Shown piece by piece: positions 31,812 through 39,244 of a stretch of 64,000 nucleotides of DNA. The DNA is from Yersinia massiliensis (GTDB lineage: Bacteria > Pseudomonadota > Gammaproteobacteria > Enterobacterales > Enterobacteriaceae), in the NCBI RefSeq assembly GCF_003048255.1, contig NZ_CP028487.1, forward strand, positions 1,860,001 to 1,924,000, in the 5' to 3' direction. The translations under genes were made by a program, and so were the position numbers. The notes under the pieces are model-generated. The model saw only the letters and a list, made by a program, of their open reading frames with translations. It was not told the DNA's origin and ran no database searches. How positions within the stretch are numbered: the stretch's first letter is position 1; each line of letters begins with the position of its first letter.

Positions 31812-32287
31812 CTCGTTCGGATAGGTGATTGCTTATTCTAGCAAAACTATAAGGTAAACTTTTAGTCCCGGCGGTTAAACGTGAGAATAAGCAGGCGCAT
31901 TTAGCGAATTTTATTATTATTTTTCTGAATATTTCCGATTGGATAGATGTAAGAAGAAAATAATGTGGTGATTATTTCGTGTAATAACGCGCATCCAGCG
32001 CCTAATAAGTGGCTTTTTTGGCTTTATTTTAGCCAAGCGAACAAGAATCTTTAGTTTACGCGCTAAAAAGAGTTGCTATTAAAAGCCGGTCATGAGTTAA
32101 TGCGTCTCGGCCTGTGGTACAGACCTATTTATGCACGACATCTTGAGTAAAGTGGTTCATATTTAAAGCGTTATCGTTGATAGCTCTTCACTGACGAATT
32201 TCCTTCATAGTGCCTCCATAAGTAACGACTGATAACCGGCTATAACACGCCCATGGTGGCAAAAATTTTTTAATAAAGGAAATAAAC
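31812..32287. other. 476-bp upstream region of the cold-shock gene
   Basis: No coding sequence. Cold-shock genes of this class have long, structured 5' untranslated leaders that control mRNA stability, and this gap could hold one. I cannot place the promoter or a cold box with confidence. Confidence 0.4.
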
Positions 32288-32500
32288 ATGTCTAACATGA
32301 TGAAAGGTCAAGTAAAGTGGTTCAACGAGTCTAAAGGCTTCGGTTTCATCACTCCAGCTGATGGCAGCAAAGACGTGTTCGTTCACTTCTCTGCTATCCA
32401 AGATCAAGGCTTCAAGACCCTGGCTGAAGGCCAGAACGTACAGTTCTCTATCGAGAACGGTGCTAAAGGTCCGTCTGCAGCAAACGTAACTGCAATCTAA
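32288..32500 (+). CDS. Cold-shock protein, CspA family
   Basis: 70 aa with both RNA-binding motifs of the cold-shock domain: KGFGFI (RNP1) and DVFVHF (RNP2). The sequence [20 protein letters not shown] is of the CspC/CspE/CspA type. It binds single-stranded RNA and DNA and prevents mRNA secondary structure. The ribosome site AAAGGAAATAAAC is strong. It ends at a GC-rich terminator. Which Csp paralogue it is cannot be decided, since Yersinia genomes carry several. Confidence 0.95.
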
Positions 32501-32523
32501 TTGGCCTTTGGCTGATTACAAAA

Positions 32524-32546
32524 AACCCGCTAAGGCGGGTTTTTTT
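32524..32546 (+). terminator. Terminator of the csp gene
   Basis: AACCCGC-TAAG-GCGGGTT followed by a run of seven T (AACCCGC at 32524-32530): a classical intrinsic terminator. Confidence 0.9.
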
Positions 32547-32833
32547 ACGTCCTAACGCAGCATAAAACCACCTATATCCCTCAATAGCGGCCTGACTGAC
32601 GAGATATCACTATCTTTGCTGACTGGGTGGCCCATTTAATCGTGGCATGCACATCCCTCATTTTGTTCGCGCAAATAAATTCGTTAAAAGCATACTGTTA
32701 TCGGTACGTAAGCCTTATCATTCTCATCTAATTTCGGACTATACCCTTTATACTTGAAGGTGCAGTGTGTTGGCTGCAACTCTCATTAGTTAGCGTATAC
32801 ACTAATAGCATTGATTAAATTGAAGGTAACATC

Positions 32834-35264: not shown

Positions 35265-35281
35265 GGTTTAGAGTTTGTTTA
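35265..35281 (+). promoter_or_regulatory. PhoP box upstream of mgtC
   Basis: GGTTTA-GAGTT-TGTTTA exactly fits the PhoP direct-repeat consensus (T/G)GTTTA-N5-(T/G)GTTTA. TATAAT words occur at 35286-35291 and 35316-35321, so the exact -10 is uncertain. mgtC and mgtB are classical PhoP/PhoQ targets, induced at low magnesium. Confidence 0.75.
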
Positions 35282-35347
35282 GGAATATAATCTTTACTTA
35301 ATTATCATCGGCAACTATAATCTTGAAAAAATTAAGTGGAGAAACTA

Positions 35348-35389
35348 ATGGATACGCAAAGTAGTAGTCAAATAAGCAAGGCAAGCTAA
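35348..35389 (+). CDS. Candidate 13-aa leader peptide upstream of mgtC
   Basis: ATG followed by DTQSSSQISKAS and a stop, with a ribosome site AGTGGAGAAACTA. It is the first short ORF after the PhoP box. A role as a regulatory leader peptide is only an inference. Confidence 0.35.
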   Translation: MDTQSSSQISKAS

Positions 35390-35464
35390 CCAATCTCCCT
35401 ATTGATTTGTTGCTTGCCGAAAAATGGCGGGCAGCACCCTCTCTGTATTTCCTGAGCTGTGCAT

Positions 35465-35516
35465 ACCCAATAATGTTTTAACTCGATGATAAATCATCGA
35501 GGGTATTAGTTTGGGT
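35465..35516 (+). promoter_or_regulatory. Structured mgtC leader RNA, alternative stems
   Basis: A perfect 9-bp inverted repeat CTCGATGAT/ATCATCGAG (35482-35490, 35493-35501) sits inside a longer one, ACCCAA (35465-35470) with TTGGGT (35511-35516). ATACCC (35463-35468) can instead pair with GGGTAT (35501-35506), so two outer stems exclude each other. This is the form expected of a leader that switches between structures. The regulatory role is inferred from the known magnesium/proline/ATP-sensing leaders of mgtA and mgtCBR in Salmonella. Confidence 0.6.
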
Positions 35517-35523
35517 TATTATT

Positions 35524-35583
35524 ATGGTATTTAACAACCACGCATTATTTCCTCCAGGCGCATTCTGGTTTTTAGCTGAGTAA
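35524..35583 (+). CDS. Candidate 19-aa leader peptide with Pro-Pro
   Basis: ATG-initiated short ORF reading MVFNNHALFPPGAFWFLAE, directly after the switching stem and before a second hairpin (ATGTGCT/AGCACAT at 35616-35633). In Salmonella the mgtA and mgtCBR leaders contain proline-bearing ORFs whose slow translation sets the downstream RNA fold. The Pro-Pro pair here would suit that. The ribosome site is weak (TTGGGTTATT), so translation is unproven. Confidence 0.4.
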   Translation: MVFNNHALFPPGAFWFLAE

Positions 35584-35669
35584 TACGCTACGTATTTCGC
35601 TCGGCACAATTACCTATGTGCTAAATAGCACATGATTATTCTACCAATGATTAAATCATGGAGAGAATC

Positions 35670-36368
35670 ATGGCATTAACTCCTTTTGTCATAAATTTAT
35701 TATTAGCGATGTGCCTTGGTGCGTTAATTGGTGCTGAAAGACAATGGCGTCAACGCATGGCGGGCTTACGTACTAATGCATTAGTTGCCACGGGCGCAGC
35801 GGTATTTATTCTTAGTTCCTATGCGACTTCGCCTGACAGCCCTGGTCGTATTGCTGCACAAGTTGTTTCAGGAATCGGCTTCCTTGGCGCAGGTGTTATT
35901 ATGCGTGAAGGTATGAATATTCGAGGTTTGAATACAGCCGCGACACTGTGGTGTTCGGCGGGGATTGGCGTGCTCTGCGGTTTGGGACTGTATTGGAATG
36001 CAGTGGTGGCGACGGCGGTGATTCTATGCGCCAATATATTATTACGCGAAGCCGCGCAACGGATTAACTTACAACCTCAGCAACAAGCAGTGGATTTACA
36101 AGTACGTTACCGGATTCAGGTAACTTGCGGCGCTGAAGAGGAAATACTGGTCCGCACCCTTATTTTGCAAGCATTAAATGGTGTGGCATTACGTCTACAA
36201 TCACTGTGTAGTGCAGATATCGCTAAGCCTGGGCAGTTAGAAGTCTGCGCTGAAATAATTGCAACACCTGCAGAACAAAAAGAAATTGAAGGTATTGTTT
36301 GCCGCGTGAGTTTAGAACGCAGTGTCAGTTCTATTCATTGGCGTATTGCATCCGAATTACCTGTTTAA
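35670..36368 (+). CDS. mgtC: MgtC family protein
   Basis: About 232 aa from the ATG at 35670, chosen for its GGAGAGAATC ribosome site. Four or five N-terminal membrane helices carry the MgtC signature (GALIGAERQWRQRMAGLRTN, then VSGIGFLGAGVIM). A soluble ACT-like C-terminal domain (~150-232) follows. MgtC modulates the F1Fo ATP synthase and phosphate uptake under low magnesium and in macrophages. It is the first gene of the mgtC-mgtB unit, under a PhoP box and a structured leader. Confidence 0.95.
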   Translation: MALTPFVINLLLAMCLGALIGAERQWRQRMAGLRTNALVATGAAVFILSSYATSPDSPGRIAAQVVSGIGFLGAGVIMREGMNIRGLNTAATLWCSAGIGVLCGLGLYWNAVVATAVILCANILLREAAQRINLQPQQQAVDLQVRYRIQVTCGAEEEILVRTLILQALNGVALRLQSLCSADIAKPGQLEVCAEIIATPAEQKEIEGIVCRVSLERSVSSIHWRIASELPV

Positions 36369-36405: not shown

Positions 36406-36444
36406 ATGGAAGAGCACCCCAGAGTTAATATCATTAGCTGCTAA
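36406..36444 (+). CDS. Candidate 12-aa ORF between mgtC and mgtB
   Basis: ATG reading EEHPRVNIISC then TAA, with an excellent ribosome site (TAAGGAGTTGTT). It sits where Salmonella encodes other small mgt peptides but has no similarity to MgtR, which is a hydrophobic 30-mer. It could be a leader for mgtB. Confidence 0.4.
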   Translation: MEEHPRVNIISC

Positions 36445-36547: not shown

Positions 36548-39244
36548 ATGACCAAATTTAAAAAGACAGGTACAGCCAAAAGCAATAATAAACCTTTTGC
36601 TATTGCGCTAGAGGCTAAGAATAGCTTGGATCAAACATTATCTAAGTTAAATGCGAACCTAAATGGCCTGACAGAGGAAGATGCCAAAGAGCGGTTGGAA
36701 TTATATGGGATCAACCAAGTTGCCCATGAGAAAGCGCCTCCAGCATTAACCCAACTATTGAGTGCATTTAATAACCCCTTTATTTTTGTACTGATGATTT
36801 TGGCCATAATCAGTTTCTTCACTGATTATTGGTTGCCATTACAAAGTGGCGAAGAAACCGATCTGGTTGGTGTCATCATTATTGTCACGATGGTTCTGAT
36901 CAGTGGGCTATTACGTTTCTGGCAAGAGTTTCGCACCAATAAAGCCGCGGAAGCACTAAAGTCCATGGTTCGTACCACGGCAACTGTATTACGCCGTAGC
37001 AGCCACAGTGCTCAGCCGGCTAAACAGGAAATCGCCATAAAGCAGTTAGTCCCAGGCGATATCATTCTGCTCTCTGCTGGGGATATGATCCCAGCCGATT
37101 TACGGCTAATAAAGTCCAGAGATCTGTTTATTAGCCAAGCTATTCTGACTGGCGAAGCCATACCCATTGAAAAGTACGATGCGATGGGAAATGTCAGCTC
37201 AAAATCAGTTGATGCAGATGGCAGTAGTGAGAGTGAACTGCTTGAGTTGTCCAATATCTGTTTGATGGGCACCAACGTGGCAAGCGGCACGGCAGTCGCG
37301 GTAGTAGTTGCGACTGGCGGGCATACTTACTTTGGATCACTGGCCAAATCGATTGTTGGAAGCCGTGCCCAAACAGCTTTTGATCGTGGTGTTAATAGCG
37401 TTAGTTGGTTATTGATCCGCTTTATGCTGGTCATGGTCCCCATCGTATTGCTGATTAATGGCTTTACAAAAGGGGATTGGAGCGAGGCAGCACTATTTGC
37501 ATTGGCTGTTGCAGTGGGATTAACCCCTGAAATGTTGCCGATGATCGTCAGCTCTAACTTGGCTAAAGGCGCGATTGCGATGTCGCGGCGTAAAGTTGTG
37601 GTCAAACGACTGAATGCCATTCAGAACTTTGGTGCGATGGATGTCTTGTGTACGGATAAAACAGGCACATTGACGCAAGACCGGATTATTCTGGAACACC
37701 ATTTAGATGCTAATGGCAGTAATGATCAAAAAGTATTGCAACTGGCTTGGTTAAACAGTTATCACCAAAGCGGTATGCGCAATCTCATGGATCAGGCGGT
37801 TATCAAATTTAGCCGAGGCAAACCTGAGATAGACGCATTGCGTGGCTTTAATAAAGTGGATGAGTTGCCCTTTGATTTCGTTCGTCGCCGCTTATCGATT
37901 GTGGTAAAAGATGAGCAGCAAAATCAGCGTTTGATCTGTAAAGGTGCCGTGGAAGAGATGCTTAGCATCTGTACTCAAGTCCGTGAGGGGAATGAAATAT
38001 TTCCGTTGGATGAGACTCGGCGTGCACAATTATTGGCGTTAGCGACACAGTATAACGAAGACGGTTTTCGTGTCTTACTGTTGGCAACGCGAGAGTTAGG
38101 TACGCAGGTCAGCGAATTGCCGCTGAATATTGCGGATGAACGTGATCTGGTTGTTCAAGGGTTGCTGACGTTCCTCGATCCACCGAAAGAAAGTGCCGAA
38201 GCGGCGATTACCGCATTGCGTGAAAATGGTGTCGCGGTCAAAGTGTTGACGGGTGATAACCCGATTATTACCGCGAAAATCTGCCGTGATGTGGGATTAG
38301 AACCCGGTGAGCCGCTGAGTGGGCGTGAAATTGAAGGCATGGATGATGAAACACTGGCGCGAGAAGTTGAACTGCGCACCGTGTTTACCAAACTGACACC
38401 TTTACAAAAATCGCGCGTGCTCAAAATGCTGCAAAGCAATGGGCACACCGTGGGGTTCTTGGGCGATGGCATCAATGATGCGCCAGCATTGCGCGATGCG
38501 GATGTGGGGATCTCGGTTGATACCGGCACCGATATCGCCAAAGAATCGGCAGATATCATTCTGCTAGAAAAGAATCTGATGGTGCTCGAAGAGGGCGTGA
38601 TCATTGGGCGTGAAACCTTCGGTAATATCATCAAATACCTGAATATGACGGCCAGTTCTAATTTCGGTAATGTGTTCTCGGTTCTCGTTGCCAGCGCATT
38701 CATTCCATTCCTGCCGATGTTAGCTATCCACCTCCTGTTACAAAACCTGATGTATGACATTTCCCAGCTTTCATTACCGTGGGACAAAATGGACAAAGAG
38801 TTTTTACGTAAACCACGTAAGTGGGATGCTAAAAATATTGGCCGCTTTATGATTTGGATTGGGCCAACATCATCCATTTTTGATATCACTACTTTTGCGC
38901 TGATGTGGTTTGTTTTTGCCGCGAACAGTGTCGAACATCAGGCTTTGTTCCAGTCTGGCTGGTTTATTGAAGGGCTGTTATCGCAGACGTTGGTTGTCCA
39001 TATGTTGCGTACACAAAAGATTCCGTTTATTCAAAGCACCGCTGCATTGCCTGTGTTGCTGACGACAGGGCTCATCATGGCAATCGGTATCTACATACCG
39101 TTCTCACCACTGGGTGCATTGGTTGGTTTAGTACCACTCCCGTGGGAGTATTTCCCATGGTTAGCAGGGACACTGATCAGCTACTGCGTCGTGGCACAAC
39201 TGATGAAGCAATTCTATATCCGTCGTTTTGGCAAGTGGTTCTGA
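36548..39244 (+). CDS. mgtB: Magnesium-importing P-type ATPase MgtB/MgtA
   Basis: 898 aa, type IIIB P-type ATPase. The phosphorylation motif is CTDKTGTLTQDR. The actuator motif occurs as the TGEAIPIEKYD variant usual in MgtA/MgtB. The hinge has GDGINDAPALRDADVGI. About ten membrane helices are present, with PEMLPMIVSSNLAKGA in helix 4. It imports Mg2+ into the cytoplasm at low external magnesium. It is encoded 179 bases after mgtC on the same strand, as in the Salmonella mgtCB locus; the gap carries a short ORF. mgtB is preferred by position. Confidence 0.95.
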   Translation: MTKFKKTGTAKSNNKPFAIALEAKNSLDQTLSKLNANLNGLTEEDAKERLELYGINQVAHEKAPPALTQLLSAFNNPFIFVLMILAIISFFTDYWLPLQSGEETDLVGVIIIVTMVLISGLLRFWQEFRTNKAAEALKSMVRTTATVLRRSSHSAQPAKQEIAIKQLVPGDIILLSAGDMIPADLRLIKSRDLFISQAILTGEAIPIEKYDAMGNVSSKSVDADGSSESELLELSNICLMGTNVASGTAVAVVVATGGHTYFGSLAKSIVGSRAQTAFDRGVNSVSWLLIRFMLVMVPIVLLINGFTKGDWSEAALFALAVAVGLTPEMLPMIVSSNLAKGAIAMSRRKVVVKRLNAIQNFGAMDVLCTDKTGTLTQDRIILEHHLDANGSNDQKVLQLAWLNSYHQSGMRNLMDQAVIKFSRGKPEIDALRGFNKVDELPFDFVRRRLSIVVKDEQQNQRLICKGAVEEMLSICTQVREGNEIFPLDETRRAQLLALATQYNEDGFRVLLLATRELGTQVSELPLNIADERDLVVQGLLTFLDPPKESAEAAITALRENGVAVKVLTGDNPIITAKICRDVGLEPGEPLSGREIEGMDDETLAREVELRTVFTKLTPLQKSRVLKMLQSNGHTVGFLGDGINDAPALRDADVGISVDTGTDIAKESADIILLEKNLMVLEEGVIIGRETFGNIIKYLNMTASSNFGNVFSVLVASAFIPFLPMLAIHLLLQNLMYDISQLSLPWDKMDKEFLRKPRKWDAKNIGRFMIWIGPTSSIFDITTFALMWFVFAANSVEHQALFQSGWFIEGLLSQTLVVHMLRTQKIPFIQSTAALPVLLTTGLIMAIGIYIPFSPLGALVGLVPLPWEYFPWLAGTLISYCVVAQLMKQFYIRRFGKWF

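What the first reader, a model, noticed from the sequence alone, without database searches (positions are those of the whole stretch)
35265..35669. Multi-element leader of mgtC: PhoP box, short ORFs and mutually exclusive stems
Seen: an exact PhoP direct repeat, three short ORFs (13 aa, a 21-aa one whose stop falls in the left arm of the central hairpin, and a 19-aa one with Pro-Pro), a perfect 9-bp hairpin inside a longer stem, an alternative outer pairing (ATACCC/GGGTAT versus ACCCAA/TTGGGT), and another hairpin just before the ribosome site. In Salmonella the mgtCBR and mgtA leaders use such ORFs to sense ATP, proline or magnesium. The ORFs here do not resemble the Salmonella ones I know, so this may be a lineage-specific version of the same control.
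Basis: partly seen in the sequence, partly recalled or inferred. Interest (0 to 1): 0.8.

Follow-up and report, generated by a model that had tools for sequence, protein, structure and literature searches.

The report
Yersinia mgtC leader with two attenuators
The stretch before mgtC is the Yersinia version of a known regulatory RNA, first worked out in Salmonella, in which two tiny genes and competing RNA folds decide how much of a magnesium-uptake operon is made.

Summary
Real features, known system. The region is the Yersinia form of the Salmonella mgtCBR leader. The 13-aa ORF (35348-35389) is mgtM and the 19-aa ORF (35524-35583) is mgtP. Both are conserved in 25 of 25 Yersinia genomes and recognisable in other genera. 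The main switches are A:B (35380-35386/35412-35418) versus B:C (35408-35418/35426-35436), and stem C (35575-35580/35600-35605) at the end of mgtP. The 21-aa frame is not an ORF: it runs from 10 to 51 codons across Yersinia. The central hairpin is real and covaries. The ATACCC/GGGTAT pairing is not conserved, and ACCCAA/TTGGGT is not better than chance. Published figure legends already list Yersinia mgtP and mgtQ. One side result may be new: 38 of 94 such leaders, in 19 genera, have no mgtC behind them, and 37 of the 38 are followed by an mgtB-type Mg2+ ATPase.

The parts
35265..35281 (+). PhoP box, direct repeat GGTTTA-N5-TGTTTA, ending 34 nt before the -10 hexamer
35293..35321 (+). promoter: -35 TTTACT (35293-35298), 17-nt spacer, -10 TATAAT (35316-35321); transcription start expected near 35328 (inferred)
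   Evidence: Salmonella mgtC has TTTACG-16-TATAAT
35348..35389 (+). mgtM short ORF, 13 aa MDTQSSSQISKAS, ATG start, GGAG site upstream
   Evidence: 25 of 25 Yersinia loci
35380..35386 (+). arm A (GGCAAGC), end of mgtM; pairs with arm B
35408..35418 (+). arm B (35412-35418 with A; 35408-35418 with C)
35482..35501 (+). central hairpin between the two attenuators, supported by covariation within Yersinia
35524..35583 (+). mgtP short ORF, 19 aa MVFNNHALFPPGAFWFLAE, Pro at codons 10-11
   Evidence: 25 of 25 Yersinia loci have the ATG and Phe-Pro-Pro
35575..35605 (+). stem C: 35575-35580 with 35600-35605, left arm inside the last codons of mgtP; inner extension 35582-35587/35591-35596
35604..35621 (+). 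alternative pairing 35604-35608/35617-35621, exclusive with stem C and with the next hairpin
   Evidence: pairs in 24-25 of 25, too little variation to test; fold
35616..35633 (+). hairpin before the ribosome site
35635..35671 (+). imperfect hairpin that takes in the mgtC ribosome site (stem D-like)
35670..36368 (+). mgtC
   Evidence: NF011912 330 bits, over its cut-off of 255
36406..36444 (+). mgtQ-like ORF, 12 aa MEEHPRVNIISC, between mgtC and mgtB
36548..39244 (+). mgtB, Mg2+ P-type ATPase
   Evidence: NF011702 1755 bits, over its cut-off of 975

Best explanation
This is the Yersinia orthologue of the mgtM-mgtP tandem-attenuator leader of the mgtCBR operon. PhoP starts transcription at low Mg2+ (inferred from the box). 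A ribosome translating the 13-codon mgtM reaches arm A at its stop codon. Whether it keeps pace with RNA polymerase decides between A:B and B:C, which in Salmonella sets whether transcription goes on and responds to ATP. A second ribosome translates mgtP. Slow passage over Pro-Pro-Gly (low charged tRNA-Pro or low EF-P) leaves it over the left arm of stem C, so the downstream pairing changes and more transcript reaches mgtC-mgtB. Shown here by sequence comparison: homology, conserved ORFs, and compensatory changes in A:B, B:C, stem C and the central hairpin. Inferred from Salmonella: ATP and proline sensing, the direction of control, and Rho. The central hairpin is a conserved Yersinia element of unproven role, most simply a spacer or insulator that sets mgtP apart from the first attenuator.
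For: RF02887 (Salmonella mgtC leader) matches end to end at 35357-35445, below its cut-off in the window (26.7 bits against 48, E 0.0055-0.013) and at the same place in the three other Yersinia of that sample (28.3-35.9 bits). Both ORFs are kept in 25 of 25 Yersinia. In 66 of 69 distinct leaders all three 7-nt arms pair fully both ways, and in 14 of 16 leaders tested 0 of 200 shuffles score as high. Threefold changes keep both pairings: GGTAAGC/GCTTACC/GGTGGGC, GGCAAAC/GTTTGCC/GGCAGGC, GGCAGGC/GCCTGCC/GGCAGGC. Covariation: A:B 6 two-sided cells, B:C 15, neither reached in 500 shuffles; stem C 6 cells, 0 of 500. In a 392-genome family sample, 55 of the 57 best MgtC orthologues have this leader directly upstream. 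A published figure legend lists Yersinia enterocolitica mgtP.
Against: RF02887 does not reach its cut-off in any of the four Yersinia of the sample. Within Yersinia A:B and B:C hardly vary, so the support there is cross-genus. On weaker measures the controls do reach the observed values: pairs with two-sided changes in 15 and 23 of 500 shuffles, pair types in 92 and 217 of 500 (A:B and B:C), and for stem C both of these in 490 of 500. No expression, ribosome or probing data were available. My folds of the 3' part leave the mgtC ribosome site paired in both states, which does not reproduce the published Salmonella picture in which stem E frees it. The mgtM start is ATG in Yersinia but TTG in the other rows, so the set point may differ.
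Confidence: 0.88

Rival explanations
1. A lineage-specific leader with three functional ORFs and its own switch around the central hairpin.
For: The central hairpin is conserved in Yersinia with covariation, and the window has two exclusive closing pairings, of which ACCCAA/TTGGGT is the better predicted one (-17.6 against -11.6 kcal/mol).
Against: Two of the three ORFs are plain mgtM and mgtP. The third varies from 10 to 51 codons and shows no ribosome site. The outer pairing is broken in many Yersinia and the alternative one is at chance level (5 of 69 leaders at or below 10 of 200 shuffles, 3.5 expected).
Confidence: 0.05
2. The leader acts mainly at translation of mgtC: the ribosome-site hairpin is opened or closed by ribosomes on mgtP, and premature termination plays little part.
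For: The ribosome site and AUG of mgtC lie in a predicted stem, and mgtP overlaps stem C. Lee and Groisman mention a possible translational effect too (passage).
Against: In Salmonella transcript levels of the coding region change (passages). The first attenuator, far from mgtC, is the best conserved part, which translation of mgtC alone does not need.
Confidence: 0.12
3. An mgtA-type Mg2+-sensing leader (MgtL-like) or another riboswitch.
For: Same physiology: a PhoP-box Mg2+ transporter operon with a long leader.
Against: The Rfam scan of the window found only cspA and tRNA over cut-off, and only mgtC_leader and a chance enod40 match at E up to 1 in this region. The ORFs are of mgtM and mgtP type.
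Confidence: 0.02

Closest known systems
Salmonella mgtCBR leader (mgtM-mgtP tandem attenuators; Rfam RF02887 covers the mgtM part)
   Same: Promoter of the same form, mgtM ending in arm A, arms A/B/C, mgtP with Pro at codon 10 onward overlapping stem C, ribosome-site hairpin, then mgtC, mgtQ-like ORF and mgtB.
   Different: mgtM starts with ATG (TTG in the rows from other genera); mgtP has Pro-Pro-Gly and not Pro-Pro-Pro; the leader is longer (about 342 nt from the inferred start, against 296); the PhoP box is direct and nearer the -10; RF02887 score below cut-off.
mgtQ, translation-aborting ORF between mgtC and mgtB
   Same: Position after mgtC, AAGGAG site, acidic residues near the start, His-Pro at codons 4-5 (Salmonella mgtQ: Pro at codon 4, acidic residues at 2 and 5).
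   Different: 12 codons in the window against 8 in Salmonella; residues differ. Yersinia pestis and Y. enterocolitica copies are already listed in the figure legend of PMC8092293.
Y. pestis mgtC promoter (PhoP box in a Yersinia-specific place)
   Same: Zwir et al. (PMC3335776, passages) state that its PhoP box has a location/orientation not identified in Salmonella; the window's box is direct and 34 nt before the -10, against reverse and 48 nt in Salmonella.
   Different: I did not compare the Y. pestis sequence itself.

Membership tests
mgtCBR-type leader | Lies directly upstream of mgtC | tested here: met
   mgtC at 35670, NF011912 over cut-off
mgtCBR-type leader | PhoP-dependent promoter with a long leader | tested here: inconclusive
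   PhoP box and promoter hexamers conserved; PhoP dependence not measured
mgtCBR-type leader | mgtM ORF with conserved adenines just before arm A | tested here: met
   ORF in 25 of 25 Yersinia; CAAATAA before arm A invariant in 25 of 25
mgtCBR-type leader | Two exclusive stems at the end of mgtM | tested here: met
   A:B and B:C, covariation across genera
mgtCBR-type leader | Short ORF with consecutive Pro codons, last codons in stem C | tested here: met
   mgtP Phe-Pro-Pro 25 of 25; stem C
mgtCBR-type leader | Stem E frees the mgtC ribosome site | tested here: inconclusive
   An alternative pairing exists, but the predicted fold keeps the ribosome site paired
mgtCBR-type leader | Response to ATP and proline; Rho-dependent termination | not testable with these tools
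   Needs experiments; known for Salmonella from passages of PMC3641672 and a review
Rfam RF02887 mgtC_leader | Score over the gathering cut-off (48 bits) | tested here: not met
   26.7 bits over the full model; so not a member by Rfam's own rule, though homologous by the other tests

The most novel reading that the evidence does not exclude
The mgtM-mgtP leader is a control module of the Mg2+ ATPase and not of the virulence gene mgtC. In 19 of 41 leader-bearing genera at least one leader stands without mgtC behind it, almost always in front of an mgtB-type gene (37 of 38 cases), in 12 of 38 with an mgtQ-like ORF still in place. That means mgtC was lost repeatedly while the ATP- and proline-sensing RNA was kept. 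In Yersinia a further conserved hairpin between the attenuators may gate mgtP initiation as a third element.
Probability: 0.55. Interest if true: 0.45.

Novelty: new member of a known kind. Interest (0 to 1): 0.28.

Why it matters
It makes it very likely that Yersinia uses the same two-ORF RNA circuit as Salmonella ahead of mgtC. The wider survey shows the circuit in 41 of 154 sampled genera, often without mgtC. So work on what it senses need not be tied to virulence and can be done in harmless relatives.

Tried and rejected
Rejected: the 21-aa ORF; the outer ATACC/GGTAT stem; the ACCCAA/TTGGGT stem as a tested switch. The latter remains the better predicted closing stem in the window itself, -17.6 against -11.6 kcal/mol, and CCGAAT/ATTCGG or similar recurs near the mgtP ribosome site in some genera, but only 5 of 69 leaders fall at or below 10 of 200 shuffles where 3.5 are expected. 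Rejected: reading TATAAT at 35286-35291 next to the PhoP box as the promoter; the hexamers at 35293 and 35316 are the conserved ones (75 of 78 rows have a TTTA-type -35 and, 16-17 nt on, a -10 with at least 4 of 6 matches to TATAAT; L118, L141 and L155 have none). The enod40 Rfam match (E 0.2-0.46) was taken as chance.

Dropped or corrected rows: searches used loci in mixed orientation and were replaced. The mgtM start of L114 was picked wrongly by the script (GTG) and set by hand to the TTG. L153 repeats a Yersinia genome (G016) and was left out. L022 was left out of the stem C count because of an insert in that stretch. Rows include near-identical copies from the same genera, and searches also the same genome twice (for example L120 and L127). 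The start-codon count is 26 ATG in Yersinia rows (plus the repeat L153) against 51 TTG by script and one more (L114) by hand; the script only looked for starts followed by GGA and preceded by a ribosome site. Identical leaders were counted once (69 left).

Literature: searches. Seen as passages only: PMC3641672, PMC8092293, PMC6908480, PMC7858274, PMC3335776, PMC5299641; the others were seen as search listings. The Nature 2012 paper on mgtM and the 2015 paper on the Rho-antagonising element are not held; their content is known here from recall and from the passages named. I found no paper in those six searches on mgtM-mgtP leaders without mgtC, but only open-licence papers are held and none of the searches was aimed at that point by those words.

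Full report
What is there. The window lies in a 5.16-Mb genome whose mgtC is closest to Yersinia: the nearest named record is Y. proxima at 96% protein identity, and the 24 further genomes of the same genus that were searched carry it at 85-99%. The species itself is not named. mgtC starts at 35670 and mgtB at 36548. Upstream there is an exact PhoP direct repeat at 35265-35281, the only one in the window, where shuffles give a mean of 0.07. The conserved promoter hexamers are TTTACT at 35293-35298 and TATAAT at 35316-35321 with 17 nt between them. In Salmonella, Zwir et al. (PMC3335776, passages) give TTTACG-16-TATAAT for mgtC and a reverse PhoP box 48 nt before the -10. They also note that the Y. 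pestis mgtC promoter has a PhoP box in a place or orientation not identified in Salmonella. The window's box is direct and 34 nt before the -10. The inferred start is near 35328, so the leader is about 342 nt.

The short ORFs. I took the leaders of all 25 genomes that the genus search returned. The 13-codon ORF at 35348-35389 is present in 25 of 25, always from ATG, always 13 aa, with MDTQSSSQISKAS identical in 19 of 25. Its stop codon is TAA or TGA at the same place. The ORF at 35524-35583 is present in 25 of 25 with ATG and Phe9-Pro10-Pro11; residue 12 is Gly in 24 of 25, and the length is 16, 18 or 19 aa. Its ATG lies at the edge of arm C of the B:C hairpin. It is not a conserved ORF.

Homology to the Salmonella leader. 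Rfam RF02887 (mgtC_leader) matches the window over its whole length but below its cut-off: 26.7 bits against 48, E 0.0055-0.013. In a 295-genome family sample 17 genomes pass the cut-off; the three other Yersinia in it score 28.3 to 35.9 bits at the same place. In other genera the same two ORFs stand in the same order. The mgtM-type ORF starts with TTG in all non-Yersinia rows examined (L114 by hand) and often ends in KAS. The second ORF has LFPPG or LFPPP. In the leader with the best RF02887 score (131.7 bits, L127), the second ORF is 16 aa with Pro at 10-12. Lee and Groisman describe mgtP as 17 codons with Pro codons at 10-12 (PMC3641672, passages), and Park et al. give UUG as the mgtM start in Salmonella (PMC6908480, passages). 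So the two ORFs are mgtM and mgtP. The figure legend of PMC3641672 already lists Y. enterocolitica mgtP.

First attenuator. Arm A (35380-35386, the end of mgtM) pairs with arm B (35412-35418). Arm B, extended to 35408-35418, also pairs with arm C (35426-35436). In the window A:B folds at -21.2 and B:C at -18.6 kcal/mol (35376-35440). Across 69 distinct leaders, all three 7-nt arms pair fully both ways in 66 (G-U counted as a pair; the exceptions are L040, L119 and L155). In the 16 of 69 leaders tested against 200 dinucleotide shuffles each, 14 were never matched, and L040 and L119 were matched 6 and 5 times. Several lineages changed all three arms together so that both pairings stay: GGTAAGC/GCTTACC/GGTGGGC (L034, L038, L116, L143), GGCAAAC/GTTTGCC/GGCAGGC (L138, L140), GGCAGGC/GCCTGCC/GGCAGGC (L118). 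On an alignment of 35 leaders (A2), A:B has 96.3% of cells paired and 6 cells changed on both sides, and B:C has 93.0% and 15; neither count of two-sided cells was reached in 500 shuffles. Weaker measures are less clear: the number of pairs with two-sided changes is reached in 15 and 23 of 500 shuffles, and the number of pair types in 92 and 217. Within Yersinia the helices hardly vary. The 35 leaders were chosen by me from those held.

Middle part. The hairpin at 35482-35490/35493-35501 is conserved in Yersinia: 7 pairs counted, 96.6% of cells paired, 4 pairs changed on both sides (0 of 500 shuffles). The alternative ACCCAA/TTGGGT keeps only CCC/GGG in 20-25 of 25. In a test of pairing to the mgtP ribosome-site region, 16 of 200 shuffles reach the window's score, and 5 of 69 leaders are at or below 10 of 200, about what chance gives. 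I therefore do not claim this switch. Six Yersinia leaders carry an insert, roughly 85-130 nt judged from leader lengths, between ACCC and the hairpin (L005, L006, L008, L010, L017, L021).

Second attenuator. The last codons of mgtP form the left arm of stem C, 35575-35580/35600-35605, with 97.9% of cells paired and a G-C/U-A exchange in 6 cells (24 sequences, L022 left out, 0 of 500 shuffles). Only one of its six pairs has a two-sided change, which 490 of 500 shuffles also reach. After it come a hairpin at 35616-35633 and an imperfect hairpin at 35635-35671 that takes in the mgtC ribosome site. The right arm of C can pair instead at 35604-35608/35617-35621. In my folds the ribosome site stays paired in both states, so the published stem E was not reproduced. 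The whole leader (35328-35672) folds at -100 kcal/mol against -75.7 for shuffles (z -5.0).

Mechanism. The most likely working is that of Salmonella: mgtM couples the leader to ATP, mgtP to charged tRNA-Pro and EF-P, and both act on transcription into mgtC-mgtB (PMC3641672 and PMC5299641, passages; Rho involvement from a review passage). The anatomy is shown here; the sensing and its direction are inferred. Two differences could shift the set point: the ATG start of mgtM in Yersinia, and Pro-Pro-Gly in place of Pro-Pro-Pro in mgtP.

Wider distribution. I built a covariance model from the 35 leaders (R1) and searched 392 genomes of the family: 94 hits at E up to 0.001 in 92 genomes, 41 of 154 genera. 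Leaders from a number of these genomes trained the model and so match by construction. The MgtC protein search over the same 392 genomes gives 57 close orthologues (E at most 2.5e-78), of which 55 have the leader directly upstream; G364 and G393 do not, and the G393 match begins near a contig end. Conversely, 56 hits are followed by mgtC at 188-426 nt, one of them the broken mgtC of G127, and 38 hits in 19 genera are not followed by an MgtC match within 1.5 kb. I fetched all 38: none shows MgtC by tblastn at E 1e-5, 37 have an mgtB-type ATPase downstream (59-79% identity in the first matched piece; 182-683 nt after the mgtP start where both were found), 30 have a recognisable mgtP, 12 an mgtQ-like ORF. 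The exception is L197, a second copy in G175. Two of these ATPases were put through NCBIfam and match the Mg2+ ATPase families best (N-terminal pieces). I also searched 16 chosen leader-bearing genomes for MgtC anywhere: nine have no match at E 1e-5, one has only a distant paralogue (41%), two have a more distant MgtC elsewhere (52-54%), G127 has a broken copy, and three controls have it beside the leader. In the wider sample some other genomes with mgtC-less leaders also have a more distant MgtC elsewhere (for example G149 and G055), so absence from this operon is not always absence from the genome. In one genus (g119) both states occur. The E-values of R1 are rough and the weakest hits (below about 36 bits) rest mainly on their position before mgtB.

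Verdict. A real and well-conserved leader, but of a known kind and already listed for Yersinia in print. The surprise value is low. The persistence of the leader without mgtC is the one observation that I did not find in the six literature searches I ran.

Noticed in passing
loci L187-L224 (fetched): 38 mgtM-type leaders in 19 genera have no mgtC behind them; 37 of the 38 are followed by an mgtB-type ATPase, 30 have mgtP and 12 an mgtQ-like ORF.
   Followed up: partly
window 36406-36444: mgtQ-like 12-aa ORF MEEHPRVNIISC with an AAGGAG site between mgtC and mgtB; mgtQ is already listed for Y. pestis and Y. enterocolitica (figure legend). The script found it in 23 of 25 Yersinia; in L022 and L023 it was seen by eye.
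   Followed up: partly
L012, L015, L022 (leader stretches): A short repeated element with ATACCC...GGGTA-type ends has inserted into the leader of some Yersinia, in L012 and L015 in the left part of the stem that holds the mgtC ribosome site. The L012 copy, used as query, has 43-67 matches in each of 8 Yersinia genomes.
   Followed up: partly
L005, L006, L008, L010, L017, L021: Another insert (121 nt in L006, 124 nt in L017 by the ends I chose) sits at one shared place between the first attenuator and the central hairpin, while mgtM, mgtP and the A/B/C arms stay intact.
   Followed up: no
window 35348-35350: mgtM starts with ATG in every Yersinia row but with TTG in all non-Yersinia rows examined (L114 by hand), which may raise its translation in Yersinia.
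   Followed up: no
window 32106-32548: A cspA thermoregulator RNA (RF01766, 250 bits) lies a few kb upstream.
   Followed up: no
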